A stretch of 64,000 bases of DNA from contig CM055109.1 in the NCBI GenBank assembly GCA_029204225.1, positions 46,562,966 to 46,626,965 on the forward strand. The letters are read 5' to 3'. The notes under the pieces are model-generated. The model was not told the origin of the DNA, searched no databases, and was given only the letters and a program-made list of their open reading frames with translations. This stretch comes from Diphasiastrum complanatum (taxonomy: Eukaryota > Streptophyta > Lycopodiopsida > Lycopodiales > Lycopodiaceae). A program made the translations under genes and the position numbers. Below are positions 5,872 through 64,000 of this stretch, one piece after another. The stretch's first letter is position 1, and each line of letters starts with the position of its first letter.

Positions 5872-5889
5872 CCAGACTCTGATCTCTGG

Positions 5890-6620
5890 AGAGAAGCCAT
5901 GGACAAAGAGTATTCCTCTTTGATCAAGAATTAGACATGATCATTAGTCAAAGCTCCTATTGGCTGCAATATCATTGATTGCAAATGGATCTTTAAGATC
6001 AAATATAATGCCAACGGAGCAATTGATCGAAGGAAGGCCAGACTGGTAGCATGAGGATTTACCTAGATCCCGAATGTTGACTACAGTGAGACTTTTAGTC
6101 TAGTCGTCAAACATTCGTCGATCCGAATGCTCTTGTCTTATGCTGCAGCTGCCGACCTCGAAGTACATCAACTTGATGTACAAACAACCTATCTAAATGG
6201 AGTTATACAAGAAGATATCTACATGATCCAGCCCAAAGGATACGTTCTAGAAGGCATGAAAAATTGTGTCTGTAAACTCCACAAAGCACTGTATGGCTTG
6301 AAACAGTCTGCCTGGGCTTGGTTTCAGAGAATTAATACATTCTTCATTGAACAAGGATTTAAACCAAGCACTGCTGATTGCAATGTTTATTCGAAGTTAG
6401 TACAGCAATCCTTCGTTATCATCACCTTGTACATGGATGATACGTTGCTCTTCAGCAACAATACCTTATATGGTTAATAATTCAAAACAGATGTTGTTCT
6501 TAGAATTCGACATGACTGATCTGGATGAAGATCACTTCTATTTGGAAATTCAAATCACAGAGATAGAGCAAATCGACTGATTTACATCACTCAACAAAGG
6601 TATCATCATAATGTTCTTAA
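5890..6620 (+). pseudogene. copia reverse transcriptase
   Basis: Readable motifs in order: a CKWIFKIKYN start near 5972, VHQLDVQTTYLNG (box A aspartate) at about 6165-6200, KALYGLKQSAWAW near 6285, and LYMDDTLLF (YxDD catalytic pair intact) near 6430. Stops occur upstream of 6127 and just after 6477, and a frameshift follows. Not functional. Confidence 0.85.
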
Positions 6621-6630
6621 CAGATACAAT

Positions 6631-7300
6631 TTGATGAATTGTAAATTAGCTCACTCACCAATGGATCCAGGCCTGCATTTGTCAAAGGACCAAAGTCCCC
6701 AGACCAAGCATGAAGAGGAGCAAATGAGAGAGTGTCCGTATCAATCGATACTAGGATATCTCATGTACGCAATGGTCTGTACAAGACCATATATCTCTTT
6801 TGTTATTAGCTCTTATTTGAGTCATGAGGTATATTCGAGCTACCTTGGACCAGTGCGTTTGCTATGGAGATGTCAGCAACGACAATCTTCACCAACTCAG
6901 TGGTTATTCTGATGCAAGCTGGGGAGGAGATACAGATGATCATAAGTCCACATTTGGATTTACATTCTTCTTCAACGGCGGTCCTATTTCGTGGAATAGT
7001 TGTAAGCAAACCTCTATCGCACTTTCTTCTACTGAAGCAGAATACATTGCTACTTCTCAATCTATCAAGGAAGCATTTTAGTTGAGAAATTTGCTATTAG
7101 ACATCAATCTGTATCAGTGCAGCCCTACAATTTTGTTTTGTGACAACCAAAGTGCTATTGCCTTATTGGCCAACCCTAGATTTCATTCTAGGAGTAAGCA
7201 CATTGAGAACATGTATCACTACATCAGGGGCAAGGTTCTCGACAGAGAGGTGAGCTTAACGTACTGCAGAACATAGGACATGGTTGCAAACATCTTCACA
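6631..7300 (+). pseudogene. copia RNase H
   Basis: Frames 6631-6912, 6824-7081 and 7082-7276 form one reading with frame changes. It includes the YQSILGYLMYAM connection, then YSDASWGGDTDDHKS, LSSTEAEYIA and CDNQSAIALLANP, the usual copia RNase H acidic motifs. A TAG at 7079-7081 separates the last two frames. The domain removes RNA from the RNA-DNA hybrid. Confidence 0.85.
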
Positions 7301-7381
7301 AAAGCACTAAGTGTTAATGCACACAACAAATTTTGTGCATTGCTCAGTCTGAAGATCAAGGCATTCATGGATCTAGATTAA

Positions 7382-27900: not shown

Positions 27901-28420
27901 AAACTCAAGTGAAAAGCAGTCAAAATATCAAGGGAGCGAATCCAGGTCCAAGCCGAGTCAGGTGGCGAAGTGGGAGCAGGATGAGGTGCAAGGTCGACAT
28001 TGGTCAATGCGAGTTGTTGACGAAAATCAGAGCAAGCGTTATGATGGCGAGAAAGACCGGCACCTTGCACATAAAGGCAACCACAGCCTGCACATGGAAC
28101 ACGGGGACGAGAAGAGGAAGAAGGAGAAAGCTGAGAAACAGAAAGAGAGGAAGAAAGCTGATGGCGAAGATGGGGCGGACAGTATGGCACCACCTGGCCA
28201 GAGGAGACAAGCAAGGAATCCGCAACATCACGGTGGGCTTCACGACGCGCGCAAGAAGGGGAAGCACTAGAAGGATGCTCTGAAGGGAAAGCAGGTCTCT
28301 TTTCTCCACGTCGAACAAGAGGATTGAAATCCGGGAGTTGCAAAGGATGAAAAGATTCTTGAGGAACCATATTGACAGGTAAAGATCCAGCCGCTATCTC
28401 CGACGATTCAAAAAATTAGT
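24975..28420 (-). mobile_element. non-LTR retrotransposon with restriction-like endonuclease tail
   Basis: One open-reading-frame LINE on the minus strand: zinc finger, reverse transcriptase, then a C-terminal CCHC and PD-(D/E)xK-like domain. There is no N-terminal APE endonuclease before the RT. The 3' end lies near 24975-25000, where the minus strand shows TTTTATTAATAAAAAC, a polyadenylation-like signal. Only a few lesions separate it from an intact frame. Its 5' limit is unclear. Confidence 0.75.
25160..28370 (-). pseudogene. LINE ORF: zinc finger, RT, endonuclease
   Basis: From ATG at 28370: CAGCGCLYVQGAGLSRHHNAC (C-x2/4-C...H-x3-C finger), SGDWENLQEEHFLR, TGGPSGMVFEHLRD, LIALDKPGGGVRPIAVG, QVDVKNAFNYVF (box A), GIRQGDPLGGVLF, then AVDTHIVGPANDV, where the catalytic pair should be ADD: the first Asp is Val (codon 26725-26727). 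Next come LGLTVNPSKC, GIRVLGIPIG, CSCGHPVDSIGTHLMRC (25750-25690), RRRVDLVLSREGIRTLGDVV, and after a frameshift near 25485 the PFALETYRCLHKKF end. Lesions: TGA 26986-26988, TAG 25924-25926, frameshifts near 27838 and 25485. It would nick target DNA and copy element RNA by target-primed reverse transcription. Confidence 0.75.
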
Positions 28421-36990: not shown

Positions 36991-37329
36991 AAACAAAACA
37001 TAACATGGAAATGGAAGTTGTATTCTGAAGCAAGAATGACTGGCAATTGCTTTCATGGATAAAACTTGCACGTCCTCCTACAATAGAGGCGATTGATGAA
37101 GCATATGTTGTTGTTGTATACTATTTACCCTAGTAGGGTGGAATTGGGAAAGAATGTAGATCGAGCAATGCACTTTGGAGAAAGAAAAAGGAAGGTCATG
37201 TGAAATAGTTGAAGCTAAAAGAAAGAGAGGTGAACATTGTGGTTAGTGATCATTTTGGCCATTGTATAGATGTGGACGTCCAAGCCAGCTGAGTTTTTTC
37301 AAGTACATTCCCTCATTGTTAAATTTGAT

Positions 37330-37480
37330 CGTACATTAGATGATAAGCTATTAGTGTTCTTATAAAGCAAAATCGTGGAGGCTCGTATGTGGTGTGGAAA
37401 ACATGTTTTGCTTGTCAAGGTTGCGTTCAGTAGATCTCTCTATGCACCTTGTGCTTCCATAATCACTTGACAAGTTGTAC
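37330..37480. repeat. dispersed repeat, inverted partner at 42855-42985
   Basis: The reverse complement of this stretch matches 42855-42985 (shared 'TTGACAAGCAAAA.ATGTTTT' and 'CACACCACATA.G.GCCTCC'). Both copies keep one reading frame of about 35 residues (pattern VLIKQ-x2-GG-x-YVV-x-KT-x-FACQ), which hints at a coding origin. Confidence 0.55.
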
Positions 37481-42985: not shown

Positions 42986-44109
42986 GTTGCATTGATTTAT
43001 AGTGGGCAAAGTGTCTTGGATTGCAAAGCTCACTCCCTCACAAAGTTGGAATGAAGATAAGATGACATGAAATCTATTTTCAAACAAATCTTGCCAATCT
43101 TGGCTATTTTTGGACAAAGAAATGACTTAATCTCCCTCACACACTTTGATGTACTTTCAAGACCTGTAAAACAAGTTTAGAGGACCTAATTTCAGCCTAG
43201 ATTAATTAGATTTCATGAATTAAATTCAAATTTAATCAATGGCACTTGATCTTGGTAGCTTGTGTGAACAGCACAATTTTTCTACACTTTCAAAAAGTGT
43301 TTATTGAATGTATTTTAAACTAATATAACTTCAAAAAGCTTATCTCTAAGTCTAAAATGAGTTTTGGCCTCAATTGACAATTTACCAAAATATGACTAAA
43401 CTTCAGTGAAATATCTCACACTCCCTCTTCAACTAGTTTAGGCATAGTTTTAGCCATACTACTTTGATCCATCTTTAGAATGATCTCCATCCTAAGTATA
43501 GATCTCCTTTCTAAGGTTCTAAAGTATCTTTCATAATTGATATAGAGAATAGTGTGTCGCGAACGGGTTTTTGTATCGCGCACGGATTTGATTCTTTTGA
43601 ATTTTTTTATGCGGAAGCTTGCAGGATCCTAGACACGTGACTACAGATCACAGAACAGAAATCATTCTAGCAATCAAGACAACGAAAAACAAGGAGATGG
43701 ACAAGAGAGAGCAACTGTATTATCAGTTTGATTTTTAGAGCGAGATGATCAATGTCCGCTCATTGGCGGCCTGGCACTCTGCTCTTTCGATGTGTTCTGC
43801 TCGTTGGTAGACTTTCATGCACAGCTATTTCGTTTTGCTATTTTTTCTATTCTTTTTTTTTCTGCTCTACTCTTGCACTCTTCTCAGTGTGTTCTGTTGA
43901 TCCAAAAATTGTTTATATCTCCATTGTGTGGAGTTTACAAGATAGCTAAACAGAGAATTACAAGAGTAGTTAACGCTAATCAACTAGTTAGTTACTCTTT
44001 GTTATTGCTAACTGTTTCAGCTGAGCATGAAGTTTCAGACTCCACGCCAGTTGAGCTGCCAGCTGGCAGCGCAAAAGATTTTCTTTCACTTTCTTTTCGT
44101 TTCGTGTCG
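42986..44109. other. non-coding sequence left of the LARD
   Basis: AT-rich, then pyrimidine-rich (43820-43880). The plus-strand frames at 43752-44196 are low-complexity Phe/Ser/Leu and unconvincing. The TTCG-rich end (44085-44109) resembles sequence at 55630-55680. Confidence 0.4.
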
Positions 44110-44633
44110 TGTTATAAGGGAAGCTCCCTAAGATCTTGCTTACAAGACAATAACACAATGGAAAACACGCTATGGAGAAACCACCCAACCAAGTAGAAGC
44201 AACCAATCAACTCTAGAAGCTTCACCCCCAAGCCAAGGAACAAGAGGCATGAATGTAGTGTGAAACTTTGGCAATGAATGCATGATCATAATGAGGAGTA
44301 GAGCGAGTTTGGCCTCTTTTTATAGAGCCATAAGCATCCTGGGCACATAGCCATGCATAGCCCTAAGTTCCCTATACATAGATTCACCTAGAATAGAGTC
44401 CTATGCATGGACCAACTATTCATAGAATTGCTATTGATAACTTTACACATGCATACACTGTCTCGTATCTTGTCTAAACTCCATTTAGTGTGTTCTGGCC
44501 CTCACAAGGATATTAATTACTTTCGGGTCACATCCAGTATGACGTGGCATAACTAACAGCTTGATTTACTGGAGTACCGTGTATCCAAGACTAGGAGTAT
44601 ACTAAATCCTACTTACTGGTCATGGACATAACA
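44110..44633 (-). repeat. 3' LTR of the LARD
   Basis: TGTTATAAGGGAAGCTCCC to GGACATAACA on the plus strand, with inverted ends TGTTAT/ATAACA. Pairs with 49643-50157. Confidence 0.85.
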
Positions 44634-49083: not shown

Positions 49084-49630
49084 AAGCAAAAATGATGATT
49101 TTTGGCTATTTTCCGTTTTTTTTCATCACCATAAAGTGGAGATTCATGACATACAACTCTTTCTCTAACACATGAAAACCTATTTACAGAATTACAACCA
49201 TATAATTGATCTGATCTTGTTGGATTTTGGTTCTTACTATCTATTTTGTGCCAAAAAGCATGAAAAACCAAGCAATTTTGACCAAAACATAGCCTAGAAT
49301 CATAAATCATTTGAGAGAACCGGCATGCATAATTATATTCATCATTAATGAACCCTAAAATGAAAGTACACTTGCTGGAAACAAGGATTTGATCTACACA
49401 TGAAAAAGCTCCAAAAAAGCTCCAAAATCACAAATTGGCCTTCAAGGACAATTCTCCATAAAACCACAAAGACCCAAGAGTAATGGATCTTAGCAACATG
49501 AAAATTGAAACTAGGATAGTACACCCACTTGCAACCTTGCTATCCACCTTGGAGGAGAATTCTCATGGATCCAATCCAAAATTTCGACAAAAGCTAGCCC
49601 TTCTCCATGTTCTCCAATCTCTGTAAGCCT
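44647..49630 (-). other. LARD internal region, non-coding
   Basis: About 5 kb of AT-rich sequence with only short frames. Contains an A run of about 30 at 49053-49082 (T run on the element strand) and another A-rich run near 47740. No gag or pol signature on either strand. Confidence 0.7.
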
Positions 49631-49641
49631 TGCTGATACCA
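49631..49641 (-). promoter_or_regulatory. primer-binding site of the LARD
   Basis: Minus strand TGGTATCAGCA: the first nine bases match the initiator-Met complement, then it diverges. One or two bases inside the right LTR. Confidence 0.6.
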
Positions 49642-49642
49642 C

Positions 49643-50157
49643 TATAAGGGAAGCTCCCTAAGATCCTGCTACAAGACAATAACACAATGGAAAACACACT
49701 ATGGAGCAACCACCGAACCAAGTAGAAGCAACCAATCAACTCTAGAAGCTTCACCCCCAAGCCAAGGAACAAGAGACATGAATGTAGAGTGAAACCCTGG
49801 CAATGAATCCATGATCATAATGAGGAGTAGGGCGAGTTTGGCCTCTTCTTATAGAGCCATAAACATCCTGGGCACATAGCCATGTATAGCCCTAAGTTCC
49901 CTATACATAGATTCACCTAGAATAGAGTCCTATGCATGGACCAACTATTCATGGAATTGTTATTGATTACACATGCATACACTGTCTCATACCTTGTCTA
50001 AACTCCATTTAGTGTGTTCTGGGGCTCACAAGGATATTAGTTACCTTCGGGTCACATCCAGTATGATGTGGCATAACTAACAGCTTGATTTACTGGAGTA
50101 CCGTGTATCCAAGTCTAGGAGTATACTGAATCCTACTTACTAGTAATGGACATAACA
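49643..50157 (-). repeat. 5' LTR of the LARD
   Basis: Matches the 44110 LTR throughout, with scattered substitutions and a small indel (GATAACTTTA-like segment shortened near 49965). Its inner end has lost the terminal ACA found in the other copy. Confidence 0.8.
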
Positions 50158-50173
50158 CATGTCATGCCTTTTG

Positions 50174-50821
50174 TGTGAAAATTGTCAACATTTCCTTGTC
50201 TAGTTTTAGGCCAAAATTGCTAAAAATGGCACATAGTTTAGGATCTGACTTTTCACACGTGTGAAACAGGTCTAGATATTTTTAGTAAGTGTATTTTTTC
50301 AGTATGAAGAAGTGTCAAACTTCAAGACCTTCGAAATGAGTCCATTTTCATGTATTTTGGACATATATGCCAATTTTACCTATATAGGGCATATTTTAGG
50401 TAAGGAGGGTCTAGAGAGAGGAGAGAGAGTCATCTCTCTCAGCTATATATAGCAGGTAGGCTGTGGAGAAACAGGTTGGAGCAGATCCATTGTATTCATT
50501 TGCTTAATGAGAGATTTTTCTATTGGGTTCTCCTTCCATTGTTGGCATTGTGTAGTGATTGAGTTCAAGCTTTGTGTGTATGATCTTAGGTGCTTTCCAA
50601 AAGTGATAGGCTGATGTATTATGGACTGTATAATGCTATTTTGGGCCGCACTTGATGTTTATGGAAGTTTCCATTTGTGATAAATGCTTTTTGATCAAGT
50701 TCTTTGCATTCTAGGTAGCATAGAATGTGTTGCCAATTCCTAGCTTATGTAGTTTGGAGTGCAAGCATTCAAGCCAATGATCTTGGAGTTTAGATCCACT
50801 TAGGATCTGTATTTTTTCACA
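50174..50821 (+). repeat. 5' LTR
   Basis: TGTGAAAATTG to TTTTTTCACA. Contains the palindromic TTCACACGTGTGAA (50250s) and a TATA-like CTATATATAGC after a GA-rich stretch near 50430-50455, a likely core promoter. Confidence 0.92.
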
Positions 50822-50833
50822 TGGTATCAGAGC
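50822..50833 (+). promoter_or_regulatory. primer-binding site, initiator-Met tRNA
   Basis: TGGTATCAGAGC exactly adjoining the LTR. Confidence 0.9.
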
Positions 50834-51995
50834 TGGTTGGCTTCTATTCATAGTAAGTATTCCATTTTTGGTGATATTTGGATGTTTGATCAAGTTCTAG
50901 CATGATTTTGCATTGCTTTGTTGATCAAATCTTACTAACCTTTGTTTTGTGAGTTGAACTTGTGGATCAAAAGCATATTTCAGGTCTATTGAAGATCAGA
51001 GGCTGAAAAGAAACTATTTTGGATCAGATCATAACACCTAATCATTTGTTGATTGTGAGGCTTGTGCATATTCAATACTAACAATGTTCTTTTCAATCCT
51101 ATTGTTGACAATCTCCATTCTTGGATGAACACTCTCCTTAAGTGGATGAAACTTCTCCTTAAGTGGATGACAAATGCTCTTTTGAGTGAGTTGTAATTCT
51201 CCTAAAGGCTGAGCAAAGCTCCCATTTGGATGAAAGATCCCCTTTTTTGGGTGAACATATTGTAAGCTCCATTGTGAAGAGCATATTGTAAAGATTGTCA
51301 TCAATTTTGGCATAAATTTTGGTGTACTTTGTTGAGCATGTAAGTAACTCTCCTTATGTAATTTGATTGGAGCATTTGCTGGAAGGTGTTAACCATTATT
51401 CAAGTGTGTTTTCAGGTTCTTAACAGGTTGAGGAACATTCTCATGTGAAGTGATCTTAGATCTACATCTAAACACCAAATTTTGACAAGATAGTGAAGCT
51501 AGTCTTGTGATTCACTAAGTGTGCTCATTCATTCACCTCTAAATCTTGTATTTATCACTTGCTGGAGTTTATAAACTTTTAGAAGTGTGGTTTACATGTG
51601 GTTTTACAGGTTGAATCAATATCTTAGTGTGGTGATCATATGTTGATCAAGTTTGTTCATTACTAGGTAATTTTGGCATCCTAGTTTTGGGTATTTTCTA
51701 AGAATGCAAGTAACTCTTCACACCATAACTTGATTTGGTCACTTGCTGGAAAGTTTGAGAGCTTAAGCAAGAGTGTGTTCAGGTTGGTTTGAGTTTGTAA
51801 TCCATTCTTAGTGTGTGCAAAGTGTTGCATGTGTTTCAATCTTCCTTTCTATGCTTGAAAGCCAAATAGTTTCAAGATAGAGGTCATTTAGGGTTCTAAA
51901 TCTTTTAAGATCTTCTCCTTCTTCATTTATTGAGAGAAAGGAGAGTGCTAGGTGCATTAGAACAGAGCCTAAGGACACAAGAAGATTTTAGCATC
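50834..51995 (+). other. long leader of the Gag-only element
   Basis: About 1.16 kb between primer site and the Gag ATG. It has several short ATG frames and repeated words such as CTCCTTAAGTGGATGA (51130-51170) and 'cttgctgga' (51369, 51552, 51742). It presumably carries the packaging signal. Confidence 0.5.
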
Positions 51996-54944
51996 ATGAC
52001 ATCCAATGGTGGAATCATGTTGGAAGCTAAAGAGAGGTTAAACTCTACAAACTATTCAACTTGGAAAGTGAGGATGGAGTCTTTACTAGAGTTGAATGAG
52101 CTAATGGATATAGTTGTGGGAATTGAAGAAAGACCTCTAATTCTTCAAGAGCAACTAAATTTTGATAGAAGGGCTAAAAGAGCCTTACATATCATAAAGA
52201 TGAATGTTACCAATGAACTTCTTAAAGAAGTTGGTAAATGTACTTCTTCAAGTGAAGCATGGAATGCTTTGAAGAAGATCTATGAGTCCAAATCCACATC
52301 TAGGGTTCTCACCCTAAGAAGGCAAATCTTCCAAAGTTGTCAAAGAGAGGGAGAGAGTGCACATTCATTTGTCTTGAAGGTTAAATCCTTGAATGATGAT
52401 CTAGCATGCATAGATGAAAGCATAAAGGATGGGGAACTAGTTCAAGTCATGTTGAATGGTTTGCTTGATGAACATTCTAACCTTGTACAATGCTTTGCTA
52501 TACAAAAGTCCTTGCCAAGTGTCAATGACTTGCAAGAGATCTTGGTGGCTGAAGAGCATAGGTTGCAAGCCAAAGGTGGTGGTGCATCAACACAAGGTGG
52601 AGATGAAGAAGCTCTTTTCACAAAGGGCAAGTTCAAAGGCAAGTGGTCCAAGCAAGGTAGTTTGGAGCATGGAAAGCATTCTTCTTCTTTGCAAAGTAGG
52701 AAGCAAGATAAGTCCAAGTTCAAATGTTTTTATTGTGGAGTGAAAGGACATTTTGCAAATGAATGCCATAAGAAACAAAATGCTAGATCTAGGTTGAGAT
52801 CTAATGTACTTCTTGGAGATGATAATTGTTGTGCTAACTTGGCAAGCTTTGGTGAATCTATGGTCAATTTTTTGGATCCATTGGATCTTGAAGATGGACT
52901 AGTGCTACCTACTAGTCAAATGGAGTCATGTGGTGCTAAATTAGTATCATGTTTGAACTCTTCTACTCATAGATTTTCAAGTCTTGGTGGCTCTTCAATG
53001 GAACTAGATGGCAAGTGCAAAAATGGAAAAGGTAAGGAAGGAGCTAACTTCATCAATGGAGTTGATGAAGATTCTTCTTTGGAAGTGATTGTTGCTAATG
53101 ACTTGTTTGTTCATATGGAAAAAGATGGAGATGCTAAGTGTCATTCTTTGCAAGAAGATGGTTGTTCTTCTAATTCTTTTCATATTGATGTATGTAATCA
53201 TGTGGGAAAAGATGATGGTGCTTTGAGCATGCTTGAAGGAAATTGTTCTTTTACATCTTTTTGTGATAAAGTCATTTGTGCAACAAGTGGTGTCACATTT
53301 CTTCATAAAAAGAGTAGATCAAAGGTTTCTATCATGAGACTTGGTGAGGGAGATCACAAGTCAAAAGGAAGAGAAGTATGTGAAGTGTTCAAAGTAGGAT
53401 GTACTTTGAATGATGTTTTTATGAACGATAGTGAGGAAGAATCATTATCATATGACTCATTACCTAAATCATTGAGTAGAAGTTCATGTTTGAAAAGAGA
53501 GAGTACTTCAATCACTCTTATGTTGAAGGTACTAAGGATTCTTTTCTTGGCTTCTAATATTCAAGAGTCTTCTACTTCTTATGGTGCAACTATCAAGAGG
53601 GAGGTTTCTAACTTTTGTGGTGCTAGCATTAAGAGGGAGTCTTGTGAAGGAAAGGGCAATGGAAGAGTGGTTCTTGGGAAGATCCAAAGCATGGATCTAA
53701 CATCTCTTCATCAACTCAAAGCATTCTATGATTGTGGTGGATTGTTCATTCATGGTCAAGATGGCAAAAGGTTGGTTGAAGAAGACTACATGGAGCAACT
53801 CAAGTGGCAACTTCTTCAAGGCAAGGGAGATATCATTGGTGAGCTTATTGAGGTTTGTTATGAACTCAAGAGGGCTGTTTTGATTAGGTTTGATACTCAT
53901 CTTCACCTACTCTACTTCATGTTAAATGGAAATGTTGGAATCTATCTTTTGGTTTATGATGGTGGCATTGTTTTCACTAACTATAGTGAAGGGTCAAATT
54001 TGAGCATTGATGAGATCTTGTGGGATCTTAATCATGTGTTTGAGAGGGAGTATCTTCAGAGTTTCAGATCTGAAGATGTTCACATATGCAAGATCTTTGA
54101 TGTCTTATTGGAAGATCAAGAGGTTTATCTTGAATTGCTTCATCAACACCAAGAGACAAGTGGCAATTCGAAGCTAGTGAAAAGCATCAAAGAAGAGACA
54201 AATGGTCAAGGCATTTTGGATCTGTTTTTACAGGTTCTTGAAGGTTCAAGTAAGGTCTTTGGAGCTGCAAGGAAGTGTCTTCTTACTCTACCTCACTTGC
54301 CTAATCTCATGTATGAACATTGTTATGTCAATGTGTTGAAATTGTCAAATTTCAATAAAACTAGTTCCATAGTTTTGCATCCTTTGGATCTTGGAGATGG
54401 AATAGTTATCATTGCTGGTTTGTATGATCAAGTACATGAATTCATTCAGATCTTGAAAGGTATTGAAGTGGTCAATATGTTTTCTTTTGAACAAAGTTCA
54501 AGATCTAGTATTCTAGTGTTGGCAAATTGGCAACTTGTTGACATTGTAGGATCAAGCGTTGTGTGCAAATCTTGTGGAGGTACTTCAAGTATTTCAAGTT
54601 CAGGTTTTGGTCATTCAAATGGAGTAGGGAACACATCTTTTTGGCATTCATTCACTCAAAGGCTTTCATGGATTGAAGATCTACAAAGGCAAGAGAAACC
54701 AGAGATGGATACATGGAGGAATTCATTAATTGAGATTCTATGTTCTTTTACATGTACCATTTTTATGATTCTATGTAAAATTGATGTAAGAAATAGTGAA
54801 GCATCCTATATGGACACTATTATCTATATCAATTATGTTGTGTCCTATTTTGTACATATTAGGATCCTTGAGAAGAGATCTATTCTGATGATGGAGATCA
54901 TTCTTAAGTTGGAACAAAGTAGTGTTGTAAAACTAGCAAGTTAA
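51996..54944 (+). CDS. gag: Gag with large unexplained C-terminal region
   Basis: 982 residues from ATG at 51996. The open frame extends upstream to 51930 without an ATG, and MTSNGG parallels MTSISS of the related Gag at 58329. Residues 10-200 form a copia Gag (TNYSTWKVRMESLLEL, SEAWNALKKIYESKSTS, LVQVMLNGLLDEHSNLV). The zinc knuckle CFYCGVKGHFANEC is at 244-257. Residues about 270-560 are Ser/Cys-rich and unknown. Near 590-690 a stretch recalls copia RT: a C-Y-E-L-K-R block, LLYFMLNGN, then LLVYDGGIVFTNYSEG, where YVDD would be expected (VYDGG at 653-657). The catalytic aspartates are absent. The C-terminus (about 905-960) is hydrophobic. No D-S/T-G protease, no integrase. Confidence 0.85.
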   Translation: MTSNGGIMLEAKERLNSTNYSTWKVRMESLLELNELMDIVVGIEERPLILQEQLNFDRRAKRALHIIKMNVTNELLKEVGKCTSSSEAWNALKKIYESKSTSRVLTLRRQIFQSCQREGESAHSFVLKVKSLNDDLACIDESIKDGELVQVMLNGLLDEHSNLVQCFAIQKSLPSVNDLQEILVAEEHRLQAKGGGASTQGGDEEALFTKGKFKGKWSKQGSLEHGKHSSSLQSRKQDKSKFKCFYCGVKGHFANECHKKQNARSRLRSNVLLGDDNCCANLASFGESMVNFLDPLDLEDGLVLPTSQMESCGAKLVSCLNSSTHRFSSLGGSSMELDGKCKNGKGKEGANFINGVDEDSSLEVIVANDLFVHMEKDGDAKCHSLQEDGCSSNSFHIDVCNHVGKDDGALSMLEGNCSFTSFCDKVICATSGVTFLHKKSRSKVSIMRLGEGDHKSKGREVCEVFKVGCTLNDVFMNDSEEESLSYDSLPKSLSRSSCLKRESTSITLMLKVLRILFLASNIQESSTSYGATIKREVSNFCGASIKRESCEGKGNGRVVLGKIQSMDLTSLHQLKAFYDCGGLFIHGQDGKRLVEEDYMEQLKWQLLQGKGDIIGELIEVCYELKRAVLIRFDTHLHLLYFMLNGNVGIYLLVYDGGIVFTNYSEGSNLSIDEILWDLNHVFEREYLQSFRSEDVHICKIFDVLLEDQEVYLELLHQHQETSGNSKLVKSIKEETNGQGILDLFLQVLEGSSKVFGAARKCLLTLPHLPNLMYEHCYVNVLKLSNFNKTSSIVLHPLDLGDGIVIIAGLYDQVHEFIQILKGIEVVNMFSFEQSSRSSILVLANWQLVDIVGSSVVCKSCGGTSSISSSGFGHSNGVGNTSFWHSFTQRLSWIEDLQRQEKPEMDTWRNSLIEILCSFTCTIFMILCKIDVRNSEASYMDTIIYINYVVSYFVHIRILEKRSILMMEIILKLEQSSVVKLAS

Positions 54945-54947
54945 GTT

Positions 54948-54957
54948 GAAGAGGGAG
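54948..54957 (+). promoter_or_regulatory. polypurine tract
   Basis: GAAGAGGGAG directly before the 3' LTR start TGTGAAAA; 13 bases after the stop-codon region of the ORF. Confidence 0.85.
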
Positions 54958-55604
54958 TGTGAAAATTGTCAACATTTCCTTGTCTAGTTTTAGGCCAAAA
55001 TTGCTAAAAATGGCACATAGTTTAGGATCTGACTTTTCACACGTGTGAAACAGGTCTAGATATTTTTAGTAAGTGTATTTTTTCAGTATGAAGAAGTGTC
55101 AAACTTCAAGACCTTCGAAATGAGTCCATTTTCATGTATTTTGGACATATATGCCAATTTTACCTATATAGGGCATATTTTAGGTAAGGAGGGTCTAGAG
55201 AGAGGAGAGAGAGTCATCTCTCTCAGCTATATATAGCAGGTAGGCCGTGGAGAAACAGGTTGGAGCAGATCCATTGTATTCATTTGCTTAATGAGAGATT
55301 TTTCTATTGGGTTCTCCTTCCATTGTTGGCATTGTGTAGTGATTGAGTTCAAGCTTTGTGTGTATGATCTTAGGTGCTTTCCAAAAGTGATAGGCTGATG
55401 TATTATGGACTGTATAATGCTATTTTGGGCCGCACTTGATGTTTATGGAAGTTTCCATTTGTGATAAATGCTTTTTGATCAAGTTCTTTGCATTCTAGGT
55501 AGCATAGAATGTGTTGCCAATTCCTAGCTTATGTAGTTTGGAGTGCAAGCATTCAAGCCAATGATCTTGGAGTTTAGATCCACTTAGGATCTGTATTTTT
55601 CACA
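54958..55604 (+). repeat. 3' LTR
   Basis: 647 bp, near-identical to 50174-50821; ends TTTTTCACA and is followed by the target duplication TTTTG. Confidence 0.92.
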
Positions 55605-55609
55605 TTTTG

Positions 55610-56768
55610 TTCCTGGAGGCATGTTTGACTTTCGCGAATTCGACCTTCGAGTTTCGTTTCGCTTCGTGTCTTAGGGTTTTTGAGGTACGTTGACTTTCAC
55701 AAATTGTGAAGAAACAAAATGCTTCTATTGCCAAACCCTTGCTAGCTTTCCATCCTCATTTTGACAGAAAAGACACACGAAACAAAAATGTTTGCAAACA
55801 ATTTTGCGACACACGACACAAAATCATTCGTGCTCCACAAAAGACCAAGAAGATCAGCCAAGTACCATGGGATACAAGTATTTGATCAGGTATTATGACA
55901 TCAACAGAAGTACTTTAGAACGTGGCTAATCTGCCACTCTTGTGATCCGTGATTATTTGTAGATGTTAATCTTTCTGATCTGGAAGTTACATAACGCAAT
56001 ACGAAAAAGTTTGCGAATTATATACTTTCTGCTTGATGCATAATACTGTAAGACAAAAATATACAGAATACATGTCTACCTGTGGGCGAGACAATTTTGT
56101 AAGAGGATCAGCAGATCTAGAAGTCTGCTAGTAAGCGAAACATTATTCATGAGAGAATTGTATTTCTCTCACGCCAATGCATTGTGTGGATCTGTCGCAC
56201 AGTGCTTGAAATCAGAAGATTAGTAGATAATATTGTAGTTGTTATGCGCATATTATTCTGAATGATTGTATGATCTTGAATGAATATTTTTTTGCTACTA
56301 TTCGTGTATCTGATTCACTTGTTTATTGAATTCCACACATTGGTTTGATTTTGTTGAATGCTATAATAATCTATAACGTAGATCGGCAGTGTTTGTCTAC
56401 ATTCTGGAGGATTGTAGGAATGATATAGCCGGTAGTGATCAACAATCATATCTAAATTCCACAAAAACTGATTTTATTCGCGAATGTTTTCGCTTCGTGT
56501 TTTGCTTCTATTTGCTTCGCGATCACTTGGCTTTAAGCGTAAATGAATTTCAGAGCTCATTTAAATTTCATTTCGCTTTGCTTTGTTTTGTCTAGTTTTG
56601 TTTTATTTCGTTACAGAGCCTGACTGAACTTTTCGTGAATTCTTCTCTTTCATCTAGTTTTGTTTCATTTCGTTTCGTTGGAGAGCTTGACTGGATCGCG
56701 AATTCTTCTCGAGCAGAAATTATTCGTGATCAGAACAGTTTTGCGAAATGTTCATGAATCGTTCGAGA
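55610..56768. other. non-coding, TTCG-rich target sequence
   Basis: Sequence between two young insertions, continuous in the ancestor with 50158-50173 on the left and 61831 on the right. Rich in TTCG, TTTCG and CGCGAATTC words (55628-55675, 56480-56768), as at 7980-8350. No gene; probably an old repeat. Confidence 0.4.
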
Positions 56769-57593
56769 TGTGAGAAATTGGCAAAAATCTAGCTTGGTAT
56801 TTTTTATGATAGAAGTTTGTAAGTGCATCTCACATGTGTGGAGGATGTTCCCACGTGTGGAGAATTGTAAAGTAAATAAAAAATGTTTGATATAGGGGTC
56901 TCATAGAATTTCATAGTCAAGCATTTAGGTGTAGGATGTTGATAGGGTCAAATTTGGCATAGATGGCAAATTATCCATTTCCACTTGTAGTGCCACTATT
57001 GAGCCAAACTAGAGTAGGAGGCCAAACTCGCGCCAATTAGAGTGTAGACAAATGTAATGCTTTTGTTTGATGAAGTTTAAGAGGTCCAATAAGATTTAGA
57101 GGTGGAACCATGAGTGGTCCAATAGAATTTGAGGTTTGTTTGAAAATGGTCCAATAGAATTTAGAGGTGCATGGATCAATGGTCCAATAGGATTAAGAGG
57201 TCGCAAAGTCTGGTCCAATCATAGTTAAGCATAGTGGTAGCTCGTGGATCTACTAGTATCATTGTACTCCTCATTTGGATCTAATTGATTTGGTGATTGT
57301 GTGGATTTTGAGTGTCATTGAATTTCTAGCTTTCTCTCTCTACCCGAGATCTCATGATGGTTTTTCTCTCTCTACCCAAGGAGAGCAGCTTTTTTCTACT
57401 TAGAATATTTTCTGAATACTTCCCACATGTGTGAGTGAGAGTTGGAAGTGATTGAATGCATGTAGTAGTGTGTTTTTGCCATAGGATCTAAGATTGGTCT
57501 TGAATCTCAATCTAGTCTTGATCTTGGTGCATCTACACACCTTAGGAGATCACAAGTACATGTTGTGGACAATCCACATGTCTGAAATCAACA
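56769..57593 (+). repeat. 5' LTR
   Basis: TGTGAGAAATTGG to GAAATCAACA. Contains repeated GGTCCAATAG-AATT words (57085-57200) and CTCTCTCTACCCGAG words (57335-57385). Confidence 0.9.
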
Positions 57594-57606
57594 AGGTATC
57601 AAAGCC
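57594..57606 (+). promoter_or_regulatory. primer-binding site, degenerate
   Basis: AGGTATCAAAGCC adjoining the LTR, compared with the usual TGGTATCAGAGC: two mismatches in twelve. Confidence 0.65.
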
Positions 57607-58328
57607 TACCTAAGGTTACCATGCATTTTGATCCATTCAAGTGAAAACTATTCATCAATCTTGAGCTAGAAATTGTCAAGGTCCATTTTCCTAGCTATCT
57701 TGTTCATTTTTGGATCAAAAGAGATTAAAAGGACATTGATTGGGTCTGACCTGGTACTGTACAAAATCAGATGCTCAGACACATCTGAGGAACATCCAAT
57801 TTCAGTTTGGAAGTTCTCTCTCATGCTTGATCCATTTATCTTCCTTGATAGCTTGTTTTGAAGTTATTTTTGTCTAGTTTCTGATGCAATCAGTTTCATT
57901 CCATTTGGTTGAGCCAATCAAAAGCTATAAGATTTTGAAGAGGGTTAGGTCGGGCACCTAGACCTGGGTGGACACATTTGGTTTGGTCAAGTCACAGTTG
58001 AATGCTTACCAATCTCATCTATATGTGATCTAGGCACTGTTTTGAGATCTTAGCCATTTTGTTTCATGCAATATCATTGTATTTGAGTCACATTTGGTTT
58101 CTTAGTGTATTTCACACGTGCTAAGAGTGTTTGATCCTAACTTTGCCCATACTCCATCATTTGATGTGATGAAGATCTAGTTTTGGAGAGATTGAGATAG
58201 CTAGTGAGAATCATCTCACAGTTTGTTGCAAGATCTTGCATAGGAGATGGTAGCACACCATTATTGGATCCTATAGTGAGAGAGAAGCAACATTTTTTGT
58301 TCATCACTTTTATTTATCTCCAATTTAC

Positions 58329-58912
58329 ATGACTTCAATAAGTTCATACTTGTTGCAACCAAGTGAGAGATTGTCTACTTCCAATTATTCAATATGGAAG
58401 TTGAGGATGGAGTCCATCTTGATACTCCAAGATGTGATGGACATTGTACTTGGGATTGAGGAGGAGCCTCAAGTCCTTCAAGAAGTACAAAAATACAAGA
58501 AGAGAGCTAGGATGGCTCTCCACTACATTAAGATGAATGTCTCTAATGAGATATTGAGGGAGATTGGTGATTGTTCTACATCCAAGGAAGCTTGGGATTG
58601 TCTCAATTCCATCTATGAGGCTAAGAACACCTCTAGGATCCTCACTCTTAGAAATCAAATCTTCCAAAGTAGTCAAAAGAGTGATGAGAGTGCATCTAAT
58701 TATGTTTTGAGAGTCAAGGATATTCATAGGGAGCTTGCATGTATTGGTGACTCAATCAATCAAAGTGAGCTAGTCCAAGTCATTCTCAATGGTTTGAGAG
58801 ATGAATATGACAACCTTGTCCAATCCTATGCCATTAAGGAGGAGCTACCAAGTTTGGAGGCCCTTCAAAGTGTGCTTATTTCTAAAGAATCAAGACAAGA
58901 GTACAAACTCTT
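58329..58912 (+). pseudogene. gag: copia gag
   Basis: Starts MTSISSYLLQPSERL; TSNYSIWKLRMESILIL, KEAWDCLNSIYEAKNTS and LVQVILNGLRDEYDNLV align closely with the Gag at 51996. A frameshift near 58908 moves the reading to the frame that holds the zinc knuckle. Confidence 0.85.
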
Positions 58913-59700
58913 GAGGTGGACAAGCTATCACTCAATCATGATGATGGCAAAGTTCTATTTGCCAAGCACAAAGAGAGGAGTAAGAAGCAACACCATCACT
59001 TCTCTAATGACAAAGCTAAAGACCAAGATGGAGAGGAGGAGGATGATACCTCTCATGCTTCTACTTCAAATCTCAAGAAGAAGAAGATCAAGTGCTTTTA
59101 TTGTGGCAAGGAAGGCGATTATGCCACCAATTGCTTCAAGAAGAAGAATCAACTCAATCAAGCCAACATCACCAATGAGAAAGAAGACTATATTGCAAGT
59201 GATGGAGAAGGCTCTCTTATGGCATCAAGCTTTTGCTCTTCCACCTTCAACAAGGATGACTCATGGTATATTGATAGTGGAGCGTCTTCACATATGTGTG
59301 GCTCCAAGCACTTTTTTTCATTTATTATGCCTTATGATGGAGTCAAGAAGAGCATATACATTGCAAGTAAGCATGAGTGCAATATTGAAGGAGTAGGGAT
59401 TATTCCCTTGAAGCTTGCATCTTCCAAAGATCTCTTTCTCAACAATGTTCTTTTTGTCCCAAAGCTTACAAAGAACATCTTAAGTGTTGGCCAACTTCTT
59501 GATAGTGGCTTTGATGTCAATTTCAATATTGACAATTGTGTGATCAAGAAGGATGGTGAGATCCTTGCATATGGATCAAGATTTGAAGGCATCTACAAAT
59601 TGGATCCAAGTGAGAGTGCAAACTCTCTTGATGTTTCTTATATGTCCAATATTTCAAAGGAGGAGGATCACACAAGATGCACATATCTTCTCTCTTCGAG
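58913..59700 (+). pseudogene. copia zinc knuckle, protease, pre-integrase
   Basis: Frame 58916-59929. Knuckle CFYCGKEGDYATNC, in which the zinc-binding His is Asp. Protease SWYIDSGASSHM at about 59260. Then VLFVPKLTKNILSVGQL and GIYKLDPS of the pre-integrase. The frame is open for 337 residues but lacks the integrase zinc-binding H and C pairs. Confidence 0.8.
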
Positions 59701-60110
59701 TATTATGGTGTATGATTATTCCTTATTATTCAAAGCATATGTTGAGAAGAAATTCTCATTGAAGATCAAAGCTTTGAGGAGTATTGGAGCTCTTGAAAGA
59801 ATAGCACCATATGAAGTTTTATTCAAGATGAAGCCTAAGTTGATCACCTTAGTGAACTTGGTAGTGCTTGCTTTGCACATATTCCCTTGGAAACAAGAAG
59901 GAAGGATGATCCAAGCTCATGGATCATGATTGGATACTCATCCATCAAGGAGGCCTTTAGTGTCTTTACACTCTCTATTTCAAAAGTGATTGTGAATAGA
60001 TATGTCACATTGCATGAAGATTTAATCTTGGAAGTGGCCGAGATCAAGGCTTCTCAAAAAGCATCACAAGTTATCTTTTTTGAAGGTATTCAAGTTATGA
60101 TGGGGCCAAT
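59701..60110 (+). pseudogene. copia integrase remnants
   Basis: FKAYVEKKFSLKIKALRS, where the second catalytic Asp region follows but reads RSIG, then APYEVLFKMKPKL, and one frame over RRKDDPSSWIMIGYSS and VIVNRYVTLHEDLI of the C-terminus. The core with the first Asp and the Glu is missing, so it is non-functional. Confidence 0.75.
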
Positions 60111-61000
60111 GTGTGAGGAGGAGTTTCTTCTTCATATGATTTCAAGAAGATCTTCAAGATGCATGGCCGAGTCTTTATGCCTCACCTTACATGGCAAAGA
60201 GGGGCATCTCTCATGTTTTATCTACTACAACACATTCATATATGCTTCTCTTCCTTTGTATGCTATTTTGCTTCATTGAATTTTTTGGATCTCAAAGTTC
60301 AAGAAAAGCTATACTAGTTTTGTATGATGCTTATGGTATGGACATGTTTCTTGTCATTATTGACTTAGATATATTTCCAATACTTTTTGAAAGCAAGATA
60401 TTGTATAGTCAAAAGTATGCTCTTGGTTCTAGTAAGAACAAGATTGAGCTTGGTACTCACTTTTTTTAAAATCATGTTTTCACATGTTTTGAGGCAAATT
60501 GTAAACTCCTCTTGAGATTAAGTGAAGCATCCAAAGTGGACACTTACATCCTTGAGAGAGTAACTAGCCTAAAAAAGATCAAGATAGTCTTTGATATCAA
60601 GATTAGATCCATCATGGATATAGTTCATTGTACGTGGACTAGTCAAGCTAGAAAGCATATTCTTGATAATCATCATTGTTTCACATCTTATGATCTTGAT
60701 CTCCATGATCCTTATGAGGGTTGGAAGCCTCGGAGTTCTCTATTTATGGTGCATCCATCATGCAAGTGGAACTTTCAAATCAAAGATCATCATCAAGCAT
60801 GGAGGAAGCCCATGATCATAGTGGCATATTGGCAAGAGATCTCTGCCAAAGAGATCTTATCATGGATATGGTGAGGGTGCCGCTATGATGGATCCCTTGG
60901 CTGGTCTTCACTTCTTATGCATACCAAAGGATCCACTCAAAAAGATTTACAAACTTCTCAAGTGATCTAGTACCTTTCCAAGCTATTTTTTGAGGAGGAG
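60111..61000 (+). other. unrecognised internal tail and polypurine tract
   Basis: Where RT and RNase H should lie there are only short frames (60191-60469 and 60512-60874) without RT motifs. The segment ends in GAGGAGGAG (60992-61000), the polypurine tract before the 3' LTR. Confidence 0.6.
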
Positions 61001-61825
61001 TGTGAGAAATTGGCAAAAATCTAGCTTGGTATTTTTTATGATAGAAGTTTGTAAGTGCATCTCACATGTGTGGAGGATGTTCCCACGTGTGGAGAATTGT
61101 AAAGTAAATAAAAAATGTTTGATATAGGGGTCTCATAGAATTTCATAGTCAAGCATTTAGGTGTAGGATGTTGATAGGGTCAAATTTGGCATAGATGGCA
61201 AATTATCCATTTCCACTTGTAATGCCACTATTGAGCCAAAATAGAGTAGGAGGCCAAACTCGTGCCAATTAGAGTGTAGACAAGTGTAATGCCTTTGTTT
61301 GATGAAGTTTAAGAGGTCCAATAGGATTTAGAGGTGGAACCATGAGTGGTCCAATAGAATTTGAGGTTTGCTTGAAAATGGTCCAATAGAATTTAGAGGT
61401 GCATGGATCAATGGTCCAATAGGATTAAGAGGTGGCAAAGTCTGGTCCAATCATAGTTAAGCATAGTGGTAGCTTGTGGATCTACTAGTATCATTGTACT
61501 CCTCATTTGGATCTAATTGATTTGGTGATTGTGTGGATTTTGAGTGTCATTAAATTTCTAGCTTTCTCTCTCTACCCGAGAGCTCATGATGGTTTTTCTC
61601 TCTCTACCCGAGGAGAGCAGCTTGTTTTTACTTAGAATATTTTTTGAATACTTCCCACACGTGTGAGTGAGAGTTGGAAGTGATTGAATGCATGTAGTAG
61701 TGTGTTTTTGCCATAAGATCTAAGATTGGTCTTGAATCTCAATCTAGTCTTGATCTTGGTGCATCTACACACCTTAGGAGATCACAAGTACATGTTGTGG
61801 ACAATCCACATGTGTGAAATCAGCA
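61001..61825 (+). repeat. 3' LTR
   Basis: TGTGAGAAATTGG to GAAATCAGCA, followed by TGAGA. Confidence 0.9.
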
Positions 61826-61830
61826 TGAGA

Positions 61831-62148
61831 GACTCCTATCAGTTCGTTACCAGAATTTTACTGGAAATTTGAATTTGCACACTTTCCATCAAATTGTTCG
61901 CCATTCATCTTTCGCTTCGCGTCACAGCAAAGTTGCATGAGTTCACAATTTTTGACACTTCCTCTTGAACCTTGGAGCTTTGCACGTTTAATCCAATTGT
62001 CTTTCTTCACTTTGCAAAGAGTGGCTTGTCGATCAACTTCAGACTTTATATATTGGACCTGGAGCTCTCCTTTCGAGATCAAATCTCGAATGTGATGATA
62101 CTTCAGATGTTGATGGGAACAAACAAGAAGAATAAAAAAAAACAAATT
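61831..62148. other. non-coding flank
   Basis: Continuation of the target sequence interrupted by the copia. The minus-strand reading 62190-61858 is partly protein-like (KVDRQATLCKVKKDNW-like stretch) and could be a decayed gag-pol linker, but no family was recognised. Confidence 0.3.
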
Positions 62149-62247
62149 GTAGCCTCCAAGGATAGCACGTCGACGTGCTAAGCATCTCACCGGAATTTTT
62201 TTTCGGCGAGACGCTTAGCACGCCGGCATGCTATCCTTGGAGGCTGC
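62149..62247. repeat. foldback (hairpin) element, MITE-like
   Basis: Arms 62149-62193 and 62203-62247 are inverted copies of about 45 bp with some six mismatches, around a loop of about 9 T-rich bases. The left arm contains the perfect 14-bp palindrome GCACGTCGACGTGC. A-rich runs flank both sides, and CAAATT/AATTTG extends the inversion. No coding capacity. Confidence 0.85.
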
Positions 62248-64000
62248 AAAAAAAAATTAATTTGAAATTTTTTTTACTTTGTGGGAATTTTAACTATGTA
62301 CCAAGCCAAATTCTTAATAATGAACATTGAAGTAGTAGCATAAAAAAGGTGGCACACCATGTGCTATCTTTTTGTTGAATGATGGCAAGAAAGAAACTCG
62401 CCAAACTTGCAAAAAACTTACTTGCAAAATTCCAAGGCCCGAATTTATGGAACTACTAGTGACCTATCGAATCAATGGCAAATCTGGCCCACTTAGGCTA
62501 TTGATGTGTCCCATTGAGGTATCCTAAACCACTCCTGGTTGTTTGTTCAAGGATCTTCTATAATCTTGACATGCAACATTGTTCATCTGAGACTTGGTGA
62601 TGCCTTATCGTCACTTTTGATGTTTCATGTGTACCTTCTTAGTCTAGAATTATCAATATCCTTATCCCAAGATGTTCTCCAGGCAGTAGCCCAAAAGCCA
62701 TTGCTCTTGGACAAATTTATTTAGCAACTATATTGTTATATTTCTCTTTTTTTGTTTAATGATTCACTATTGCTATAGAATCAAGTAGACGATTTTAATT
62801 TGTTAGAGTGACATAATTATGTTCGCATGTTATTGAGAGTGTAGGATGTTTCACTTAAATGGAGATGTGATTCCCCTAGATGATCGTCTTCTTGTTCTTC
62901 TTCATGGAGGCCAAGAACTTGTTGTACACTTGCCTTGCATATTGGTTTTGATCACATCCATGTAGTAGTCGTGTAAGAATTCCAAAAACGATTATTTTGC
63001 ATATAGCATTGGGTTACATATATGTGATCTTTATGAGACCACATTCCATGGATTGCTGAATTTGTCAAGTCTTGTGGATAGATAGCATTTTAGAAGTTAT
63101 GACAAAATTCTTGGGTGCACTTGAGGCCATGGCATTGTGAACATTTGTGAGGATCTGTCAATATAGGTCATTTATATCGCCAAAAGATAATTTGTGATGT
63201 CTCATTTAACAAAAGGACCATGACGTATTAAGTAGTATAGGGCTGGAGTTGTTAAAGAAATTGTGACATGATGTATTGTCATTAACATTTGTAGCAAGTT
63301 TGTAATGGTTAGGATTGTTACCATGTTTGTTTGGGTCGTTAAAACTTAGGAACTATTTAGTAAAGGTCAAGATCATTATTATTGGTCTAAATGTTAAACT
63401 TTCTAATGATTGGCTATTGATAAATTTGAGAAGCGAATCCTAAGTGGTAAATGAGCCTAATGGACAGGTTAACGTTGACCGTTAGTACTTTCTAATTGAT
63501 GGGTGACCAAATGTTATGTAGTTTGGAAAGGGTGTTGGACTTGGTTTGGGTCTACTAACACTATGTCAAACGCTTTGATGTATATAGTCTCTTAAAGCTA
63601 GATCTTATCTACAATATCCCATTTTGGGTTTTGTGAGAAATTGGATCCCTACCTCCTGTGAACCACTCTTGCCAATTAGCAAGGAAGCACAAGTAAAGAG
63701 ATGGTACCAAATTTTGATGGATTTTTGTGCTCTTGTATTTGTGATATTTTTTCTCACACTTGAAGACTAATTTGCTGAATGCAGAATGAGCTCATGTTTA
63801 AATGGGCTGTGCAAAGGAGCAAAAGGATTAACTTGCAGAATCTGCACCAACTTTGACCACCCAGTACCTAGCGCACTTTTTGAAGTGCAGTCCTATTTCT
63901 TGAGATAGAATCTCTTTGTCCTCTATAAGAATATATAGTAAAAATGGCCAGGTAAATCATTTATATTACCTTGATTCTAGAGGCGAATGAGTTTGGCACG
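62248..64000. other. no recognisable gene
   Basis: AT-rich sequence with only short frames (for example 62539-62724 plus). One TTTGTGAGAAATTGG at about 63634 resembles the LTR start at 56769 but does not continue. Confidence 0.4.

What the first reader, a model, noticed from the sequence alone, without database searches (positions are those of the whole stretch)
50174..55604. Very young, intact Gag-only LTR retrotransposon with a ~700-residue unexplained tail
The LTRs differ by one substitution and one T. The TTTTG target duplication, primer site and polypurine tract are perfect, and the 982-codon ORF has no stop. Yet it encodes Gag and zinc knuckle only, with no protease, integrase or catalytic RT. 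Terminal-repeat retrotransposons carrying only GAG have been described in plants (TR-GAGs). The large conserved-length tail is what looks new. Recent movement plus an intact frame imply that the protein is useful to the element.
Basis: partly seen in the sequence, partly recalled or inferred. Interest (0 to 1): 0.88.

Follow-up and report, generated by a model that had tools for sequence, protein, structure and literature searches.

The report
Jumping Gag element with dead polymerase tail
This is a recently multiplying plant retrotransposon that makes its own capsid protein but no recognisable working copying enzymes, and part of its long 'unexplained' tail is a worn-out reverse transcriptase that has stayed in frame, which bears on how half-dead elements keep spreading.

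Summary
E1 (50174-55604) has 648/647-bp LTRs differing by one substitution and one T, TTTTG target duplications, PBS, PPT and an open 982-codon ORF: copia-type Gag, zinc knuckle and a 697-residue tail without Pfam match. It is no assembly freak: the one answered search of its 1.74-Gb genome listed 46 near-identical copies (E1 included; a lower bound). I read 41: 37 of 38 others with both full LTRs have perfect 5-bp duplications; 37 of 41 ORFs are open, none frameshifted. The usual form has 1024 codons; E1 belongs to a minority with a 126-bp in-frame deletion. The tail is not wholly new: residues about 555-683 derive from a copia reverse transcriptase whose YVDD now reads YDGG (41 of 41 copies), so it should not be catalytic. 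Residues 286-554 and 684-940 remain unexplained; the last ~40 are shared with another element. In this young family Gag changes look constrained and tail changes neutral (small numbers). Best reading: a non-autonomous Gag-donor element like TR-GAG or wheat RLG_Quinta, moved by enzymes from elsewhere, its tail partly vestigial pol kept open. The partner was not found.

The parts
50169..50173 (+). Target-site duplication TTTTG, left
   Evidence: identical to 55605-55609
50174..50821 (+). 5' LTR, 648 bp, TGTGAAAATT...TTTTTTCACA; TATA-like GCTATATATAGC at 50442-50453 (by eye)
50822..50836 (+). Primer binding site TGGTATCAGAGCTGG (first 12 nt complementary to the 3' end of plant initiator tRNA-Met, recalled)
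50837..51995 (+). Untranslated leader of about 1.16 kb
   Evidence: no ORF of 80 aa or more on this strand before the Gag ORF
51996..54944 (+). Single ORF, 982 codons plus TAA; the stop lies 13 nt before the 3' LTR
52038..52574 (+). DUF4219 plus Retrotran_gag_2 (copia-type Gag), residues 15-193
   Evidence: 5e-22 for Retrotran_gag_2
52722..52766 (+). CCHC zinc knuckle, residues 243-257
   Evidence: E 0.0019, below Pfam cut-off; retroviral nucleocapsid chains 1u6p and 1a6b at E 0.12-0.13
52851..53657 (+). Tail part 1, residues 286-554: unexplained, coding-like; no protease or integrase signal
53658..54044 (+). RT-derived segment, residues 555-683, 33% identity over 116 columns to the copia profile
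53955..53966 (+). Position of the RT catalytic YVDD, here YDGG (residues 654-657); YDGG in 41 of 41 copies read
   Evidence: (alignments)
54045..54815 (+). Tail part 2, residues 684-940: unexplained; no RT or RNase H signal
54691..54692 (+). Approximate point of the 126-bp in-frame deletion relative to the 1024-codon form (also in L009, L010, L011)
54816..54932 (+). C-terminal segment, residues 941-979, shared with E3
54948..54957 (+). Polypurine tract GAAGAGGGAG
54958..55604 (+). 3' LTR, 647 bp
55605..55609 (+). Target-site duplication TTTTG, right
56769..61825 (+). E2: neighbouring related element. LTRs of 825 bp with 19 differences, Gag 55% identical to E1 over 193 residues, protease and integrase remnants out of frame with Gag, no RT signal
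43421..43556 (-). E3: fragment of a different element, with the shared C-terminal segment, the same polypurine tract, and a different LTR starting at 43420

Best explanation
E1 is a recently inserted copy of an actively spreading, non-autonomous copia-type LTR retrotransposon. SHOWN: two near-identical LTRs, target duplication, PBS, PPT, one open frame, many near-identical copies at different sites, copia-type Gag, and an RT-derived segment in the tail that lacks the YVDD motif. INFERRED: the LTR promoter makes one RNA, which is translated into a Gag-tail protein. Gag builds the particles and packages the RNA. Reverse transcriptase, RNase H, integrase and protease come from an autonomous copia relative not identified here. 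The tail is what is left of the pol end of an ancestral polyprotein: an RT piece plus flanks too changed, or of other origin, to recognise. Its frame has been kept because a stop soon after Gag would leave a 3' untranslated region over 2 kb long and expose the RNA to nonsense-mediated decay, so openness matters more than most of the amino acids; only the C-terminal end looks conserved in sequence. The first half (a trans-mobilised Gag donor with a dead-RT-derived tail) I hold at about 0.85; the reason the frame stays open is at most an even bet.
For: Structure. Family and mobility: one search listed 46 copies of the ORF (E1 included) at 98-100% identity, only the 46 best of 123,966 first-look candidates being scored; of the 40 others read, 38 have both full LTR matches and 37 of these 38 perfect TSDs; after removing 2 flank-identical duplicates, 15 of 36 LTR pairs have no substitution. 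ORF: 33 copies of 1024 codons, 4 of 982, 4 with an early stop, no frameshift among 41. RT origin: whole tail against the RT-RNase H part of 35 plant copia proteins, mean local score 69.0 against 41.0 +- 2.9 for 200 shuffles (max 56.0), reversed tail 39.7, and no signal against Gag-PR-INT (40.6 against 40.5; 32 proteins); the same on copy L012 against the RT alone, 68.8 against 37.5 +- 2.3, 0 of 100 shuffles as high; hhalign 116 columns, 33% identity, E 4e-4. YDGG in 41 of 41 copies. Openness rather than sequence: variants in the tail 44 N, 17 S, 4 stop against 45.0, 16.1, 3.9 expected; in Gag 6 N, 8 S against 9.7, 3.7 (P 0.014, uncorrected, one of several regions tested). Long 3'UTRs can trigger NMD in plants (PMC3711448, passages). 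Precedents: PMC11302176 and PMC8704663 (passages).
Against: No autonomous partner was found, because only one genome search was answered. Gag against tail N/S is only marginally different (Fisher P 0.057), Gag singletons alone (5 N, 5 S) are not significant (P 0.11), and the copies are so young that most variants are singletons, probably after insertion. Stops in the tail are as frequent as expected by chance (4 against 3.9), and flags one stop in 2 of the 5 copies not read. The last 36 codons differ from E3 with pN/pS 0.35 (bootstrap 0.16-0.70), and codon-position bias exceeds the stop-free null, which speak for past amino-acid constraint and not for openness alone. Weaker RT tests: the pol HMM gave the tail 5.0 bits with 1 of 1000 shuffles higher, the RT-only HMM 7.4 bits with none higher; hhalign probability was only 30-36%; an early single-protein test with looser gaps gave 81 against a shuffle maximum of 94 for the whole tail. 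No RNase H, protease or integrase relic was detected. The structure model was useless (pLDDT 33).
Confidence: 0.6

Rival explanations
1. The tail is a functional, repurposed domain: a dead RT fused to Gag that still works in the particle, for example by holding the partner's polymerase or the RNA, or by interfering with the partner. Its sequence is under selection across families.
For: Strong coding signal beyond absence of stops. The C-terminal segment is shared with E3, which has a different LTR (score 102 against 23 +- 4), with pN/pS 0.35. A weaker match to E2 near the same place (53 against 34 +- 5; 3 of 2000 shuffles as high); E3 against E2 gave none. 37 of 41 copies open.
Against: Tail variants in the young family show no deficit of amino-acid changes (0.92). 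A linked tract of L010 at residues 301-336, apparently from a diverged subfamily, holds 9 amino-acid-changing and 4 silent changes, about the unselected proportion (expects 9.4 to 4.0 for shared changes in that part of the tail). A 42-residue in-frame deletion is tolerated by copies at three independent sites. The E3 comparison covers 36 codons and one pair.
Confidence: 0.25
2. Nothing maintains the tail: a recent master copy happened to be open, and the family is too young for its copies to have decayed.
For: Mean pairwise difference 0.18%; LTR difference 0.18% per site; the search scored only the best candidates, so decayed copies are under-sampled. Stops among variants equal expectation, 4 against 3.9.
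Against: The RT-like block has diverged to about 33% identity from plant copia RTs and lost YVDD, yet 697-739 codons carry no stop. An unselected reading frame of that age should be broken many times over: 53 stops are expected in a shuffled tail.
Confidence: 0.2
3. E1 is an ordinary TR-GAG or Quinta-like element whose tail was captured from host or other sequence; the RT resemblance is a small embedded piece.
For: Residues 286-554 and 684-940 show no pol signal. No homologue of the tail at E <= 0.001 in about 5.8 billion proteins, of which 6383 sharing words were scored. The authors of the Quinta paper say its extra domain may have been acquired later (PMC11302176, passages).
Against: From RVVLG to the end there are 426 residues in E1 and 468 in the usual form, against 446 in copia protein P0002, so the RT block lies where pol should be, which fits decay in place better than capture. 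This is a geometric argument only.
Confidence: 0.15
4. Assembly chimera or a single decayed copia element.
For: None beyond the odd ORF.
Against: 46 copies (E1 included) at 98-100% identity, different target duplications, no frameshift in the 41 read.
Confidence: 0.01

Closest known systems
TR-GAG elements (terminal-repeat retrotransposons with GAG domain), e.g. Arabidopsis AT5TE33540 of ATCOPIA63 (PMC8704663, passages; sunflower set in PMC9784723, passages)
   Same: Two LTRs, one ORF with Gag, no protease, integrase or RT domain by family search; AT5TE33540 was seen transposing in ddm1 plants.
   Different: AT5TE33540 has a 562-residue Gag ORF; here 982-1024 codons with a 697-739-residue tail holding a dead RT segment. 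The paper I took for the defining one (PMC4350172) is not held.
RLG_Quinta of wheat, partner of RLG_Cereba (PMC11302176, passages)
   Same: One ORF with Gag plus a domain of unknown function, no RT or INT coding, recent copies, argued to be moved in trans while donating Gag.
   Different: Quinta is gypsy-type (RLG) with a named autonomous partner; E1 is copia-type with no partner identified, and part of its extra domain is traceable to RT.
RLG_Sabrina and RLG_WHAM of wheat, 'semi-autonomous' Gag-protease elements (PMC9744471, passages)
   Same: High-copy elements giving Gag but lacking RT and INT.
   Different: Gypsy-type, with a protease domain and no RT-derived tail described in the passages seen.
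BARE2 of barley (PMC9744471, passages)
   Same: Copia-type (recalled), presumed to be moved with help from a relative.
   Different: The opposite loss: BARE2 has a disrupted GAG with its other genes intact.

Membership tests
LTR retrotransposon | Two near-identical LTRs, TG...CA ends, target duplication, PBS, PPT | tested here: met
   37 of 38 further copies with perfect TSDs
Copia-type (superfamily) | Copia-type Gag | tested here: met
   Retrotran_gag_2 'gag-polypeptide of LTR copia-type', 5e-22
Copia-type (superfamily) | Integrase before RT in pol | tested here: inconclusive
   RT relic present; no integrase signal in the tail. Relative E2 keeps protease and integrase remnants after Gag
Autonomous copia element | Catalytic RT (YVDD), integrase, protease | tested here: not met
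   YDGG in place of YVDD; no PR or INT
TR-GAG | LTRs plus one ORF encoding Gag, no other pol domain by family search | tested here: met
TR-GAG | ORF limited to Gag | tested here: not met
   697-739 residues follow Gag and the zinc knuckle, with an RT-derived block
TR-GAG / Quinta-like | Moved in trans by an autonomous partner sharing LTR ends, PBS and PPT | not tested
   no search for a partner could be run; the genome search stayed busy
Quinta-like (Gag plus unknown domain) | Single open frame, Gag followed by an unknown domain, kept in many copies | tested here: met
   37 of 41 ORFs open, no frameshift
LARD or TRIM | No coding capacity | tested here: not met
   982-codon ORF with coding signal

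The most novel reading that the evidence does not exclude
A lineage of copia-like elements has turned its own polymerase into a non-catalytic Gag-fused domain shared across families with different LTRs, and these Gag-pseudo-RT proteins form particles that capture a partner's replication enzymes: a retrotransposon 'satellite' with a repurposed dead RT.
Probability: 0.18. Interest if true: 0.75.

Novelty: new variant of a known kind. Interest (0 to 1): 0.5.

Why it matters
Gag-only elements raise the question of why non-autonomous elements keep coding for anything. Here is a very young family with dozens of near-identical copies in which Gag is kept, the polymerase is dead, and yet about 700 codons after Gag stay open. 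It separates three causes that can be tested by sequence comparison and reporter RNA: a useful tail, protection of the RNA from decay, or plain youth. It also suggests that 'domains of unknown function' fused to Gag, as in wheat Quinta, may be worn polymerases and deserve a profile search against RT.

Tried and rejected
Chimera or lone decayed copy: rejected. RNase H relic at the C-terminus: looked good by eye, failed the test (E1 end -0.6 bits with 833 of 1877 listed shuffles as high, E3 698 of 1974; one search also negative). Protease or integrase relic in residues 286-555: none against P0002 or 32 copia proteins. Tail 1 against E2: best frame 27 of 400 shuffles as high, not significant. Protein search with the tail: no hit at E <= 0.001 among 6383 candidates; with the whole ORF: 1 hit among 5839 candidates, a Taraxacum copia protein, 25% identity over 19% of the query. 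IMG/VR scan: nothing. Rfam: nothing in 49500-64000. Structure prediction of residues 540-982 without an alignment: mean pLDDT 33, so no fold search was run. PDB sequence search: only weak matches at the zinc knuckle, best E 0.12. A whole-ORF N/S comparison of old subfamilies was not possible. Literature: six searches on Gag-only or non-autonomous elements (one search found no paper, the others listed 7 to 20 papers each, some from longer lists) showed no description of a Gag ORF with an in-frame dead RT tail; I saw titles and starts of abstracts, and passages of four of those papers (PMC9784723, PMC11302176, PMC9744471, PMC8704663), so this is a weak absence. PMC3711448 (passages) came.

Full report
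WHAT IS THERE. The element E1 lies at 50174-55604. Its LTRs are 648 and 647 bp and differ by one T/C substitution and one missing T. The target duplication is TTTTG on both sides. The primer site TGGTATCAGAGC follows the 5' LTR directly and GAAGAGGGAG precedes the 3' LTR. One ORF runs from 51996 to 54944, 982 codons, ending 13 nt before the 3' LTR. Pfam sees DUF4219, copia-type Gag (5e-22) and a CCHC knuckle just below its cut-off, and nothing credible afterwards.

IS THE FRAME REAL. The 697-codon tail has no stop, where shuffles of it average 53 and never fall below 33 in 2000. Its codon-position bias (77.7) exceeds 1000 plain shuffles (max 22.0) and 2000 stop-free random sequences of the same composition (max 50.9). 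It has been coding sequence for long.

THE FAMILY. The own-genome search was answered once. The window is part of a 1.74-Gb assembly. It listed 46 ORF copies, E1 included, at 98-100% identity; only the best 46 of 123,966 first-look candidates were scored, so copy number is a lower bound and decayed copies are under-sampled. Both LTRs matched over full length in 38 of 40; 37 of these 38 have perfect 5-bp duplications and L015 does not; there are 34 distinct duplications. Two pairs (L010/L011, L028/L029) share flanks and are duplicated DNA, leaving 39 independent insertions with E1. Of 36 independent LTR pairs 15 have no substitution and the mean is 0.0018 per site. With the rice rate of 1.3e-8 (recalled, perhaps unsuitable here) that is of the order of 70,000 years.

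ORF FORMS. Of 41 ORFs 33 have 1024 codons, 4 have 982 (E1, L009, L010, L011, all with the same 126-bp in-frame deletion), and 4 end early (after 642, 817, 920 and 1000 codons: L027, L030, L026, L021). None has a frameshift. One search also flags a stop in L028 and L029; it lies five codons before the Gag ATG, in the stretch I had included upstream, not in the ORF. The deletion form has three independent sites, so it moves too.

WHAT THE TAIL IS. Against the RT-RNase H part of 35 plant copia proteins the whole tail scores a mean of 69.0, against 41.0 +- 2.9 for 200 shuffles (max 56.0) and 39.7 for the reversed tail; against Gag-PR-INT there is nothing (32 proteins). On copy L012 the RT part alone gives 68.8 against 37.5 +- 2.3 (0 of 100 shuffles as high). 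hhalign aligns residues 555-683 over 116 columns at 33% identity (E 4e-4 to 6e-4, probability 30-36%). The match begins RVVLG..SMDL, runs through the region of RT motif A (motif name recalled; FIHG, EE.YMEQ) and reaches YVDD, here YDGG, which is so in 41 of 41 copies. Less favourable tests: the pol HMM gave 5.0 bits with 1 of 1000 shuffles higher, the RT HMM 7.4 bits with none higher, and a single-protein test with looser gaps did not beat every shuffle for the whole tail (81 against a maximum of 94). The 35 proteins are related to each other and were chosen by me from the 120 listed, so they are not 35 independent tests; the shuffles carry the same dependence. I take the RT origin of this block as well supported. 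Nothing upstream (286-554) or downstream (684-940) can be tied to protease, integrase or RNase H.

RELATIVES IN THE WINDOW. E2 (56769-61825) next door has a Gag 55% identical to E1's over 193 residues, LTRs with 19 differences in 825 bp, protease and integrase remnants in other frames, and no RT signal. E3 (43421-43556, minus) is the 3' end of another element with a different LTR but the same PPT; its last ~36 codons match E1's (score 102 against 23 +- 4 for 2000 shuffles, max 47) with pN/pS 0.35 (bootstrap 0.16-0.70). E2 and E1 share a weaker match nearby (3 of 2000 shuffles as high), E2 and E3 none. E1 against E2 Gag has pN/pS 0.40 (0.32-0.49), silent sites being near saturation.

SELECTION IN THE YOUNG FAMILY. 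Among 79 distinct variants, Gag has 6 amino-acid-changing and 8 silent, against 9.7 and 3.7 expected from context-matched placement (P 0.014, uncorrected among several regions and classes; singletons alone P 0.11, shared alone P 0.066). The tail has 44, 17 and 4 stops, against 45.0, 16.1 and 3.9. Gag against tail: Fisher P 0.057. No stop in the ORF is shared by two copies. L010 carries a tract of linked changes (301-336, part shared with L047/L048, and 248-249 shared with L031/L037) that looks like recombination with an unsampled subfamily; between 301 and 336 it has 9 amino-acid-changing and 4 silent changes, about what no selection would give. The numbers are small and 57 of 79 variants are singletons.

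HOW IT LIKELY WORKS. E1 gives Gag and needs RT, RNase H, integrase and protease from elsewhere, like TR-GAGs, of which one has been seen moving in Arabidopsis ddm1 (PMC8704663, passages), and like wheat Quinta, whose ORF is Gag plus an unknown domain (PMC11302176, passages). Why the frame stays open is unsettled: RNA protection from long-3'UTR decay, which operates in plants (PMC3711448, passages; not shown for this host), a partly functional tail, or youth. I lean to openness with a constrained C-terminal end.

LIMITS. No partner was found; the search for E3's family did not complete. The structure model was unusable.

Noticed in passing
window 56769-61825: E2, a second fairly young element (LTRs 97.7% identical over 825 bp) beside E1 with related Gag and a pol broken by frameshifts; flanking CGAGA/TGAGA looks like a 5-bp duplication with one change.
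   Followed up: partly
window 43421-43556 (minus): E3, a 3' fragment of another element sharing E1's C-terminal codons and polypurine tract but with a different LTR; a stretch 75% similar to part of the sequence after it lies at 37315-37448.
   Followed up: partly
L010 (and L011, L031, L037, L047, L048): Clusters of linked variants at ORF residues 248-249 and 301-336 suggest template switching with a diverged, unsampled subfamily.
   Followed up: partly
window 49643-50157 and 44113-44633: E1 landed about 16 bp beyond a repeat whose 94% identical copy lies inverted at 44113-44633.
   Followed up: partly
window 5851-7357: Decayed copia RT-RNase H of another lineage (38% identical to a Taraxacum copia protein over the RT), used as a positive control for the RT profile.
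   Followed up: partly
window 25237-28370 (minus): Non-LTR-like RT open frames (LINE-like by eye, not searched) with 49% GC in a window of 39% GC.
   Followed up: no
whole genome G000: 1.74 Gb in 5176 contigs; long contigs numbered up to C23 were seen. This fits the clubmoss Diphasiastrum complanatum (n = 23) from memory only.
   Followed up: no
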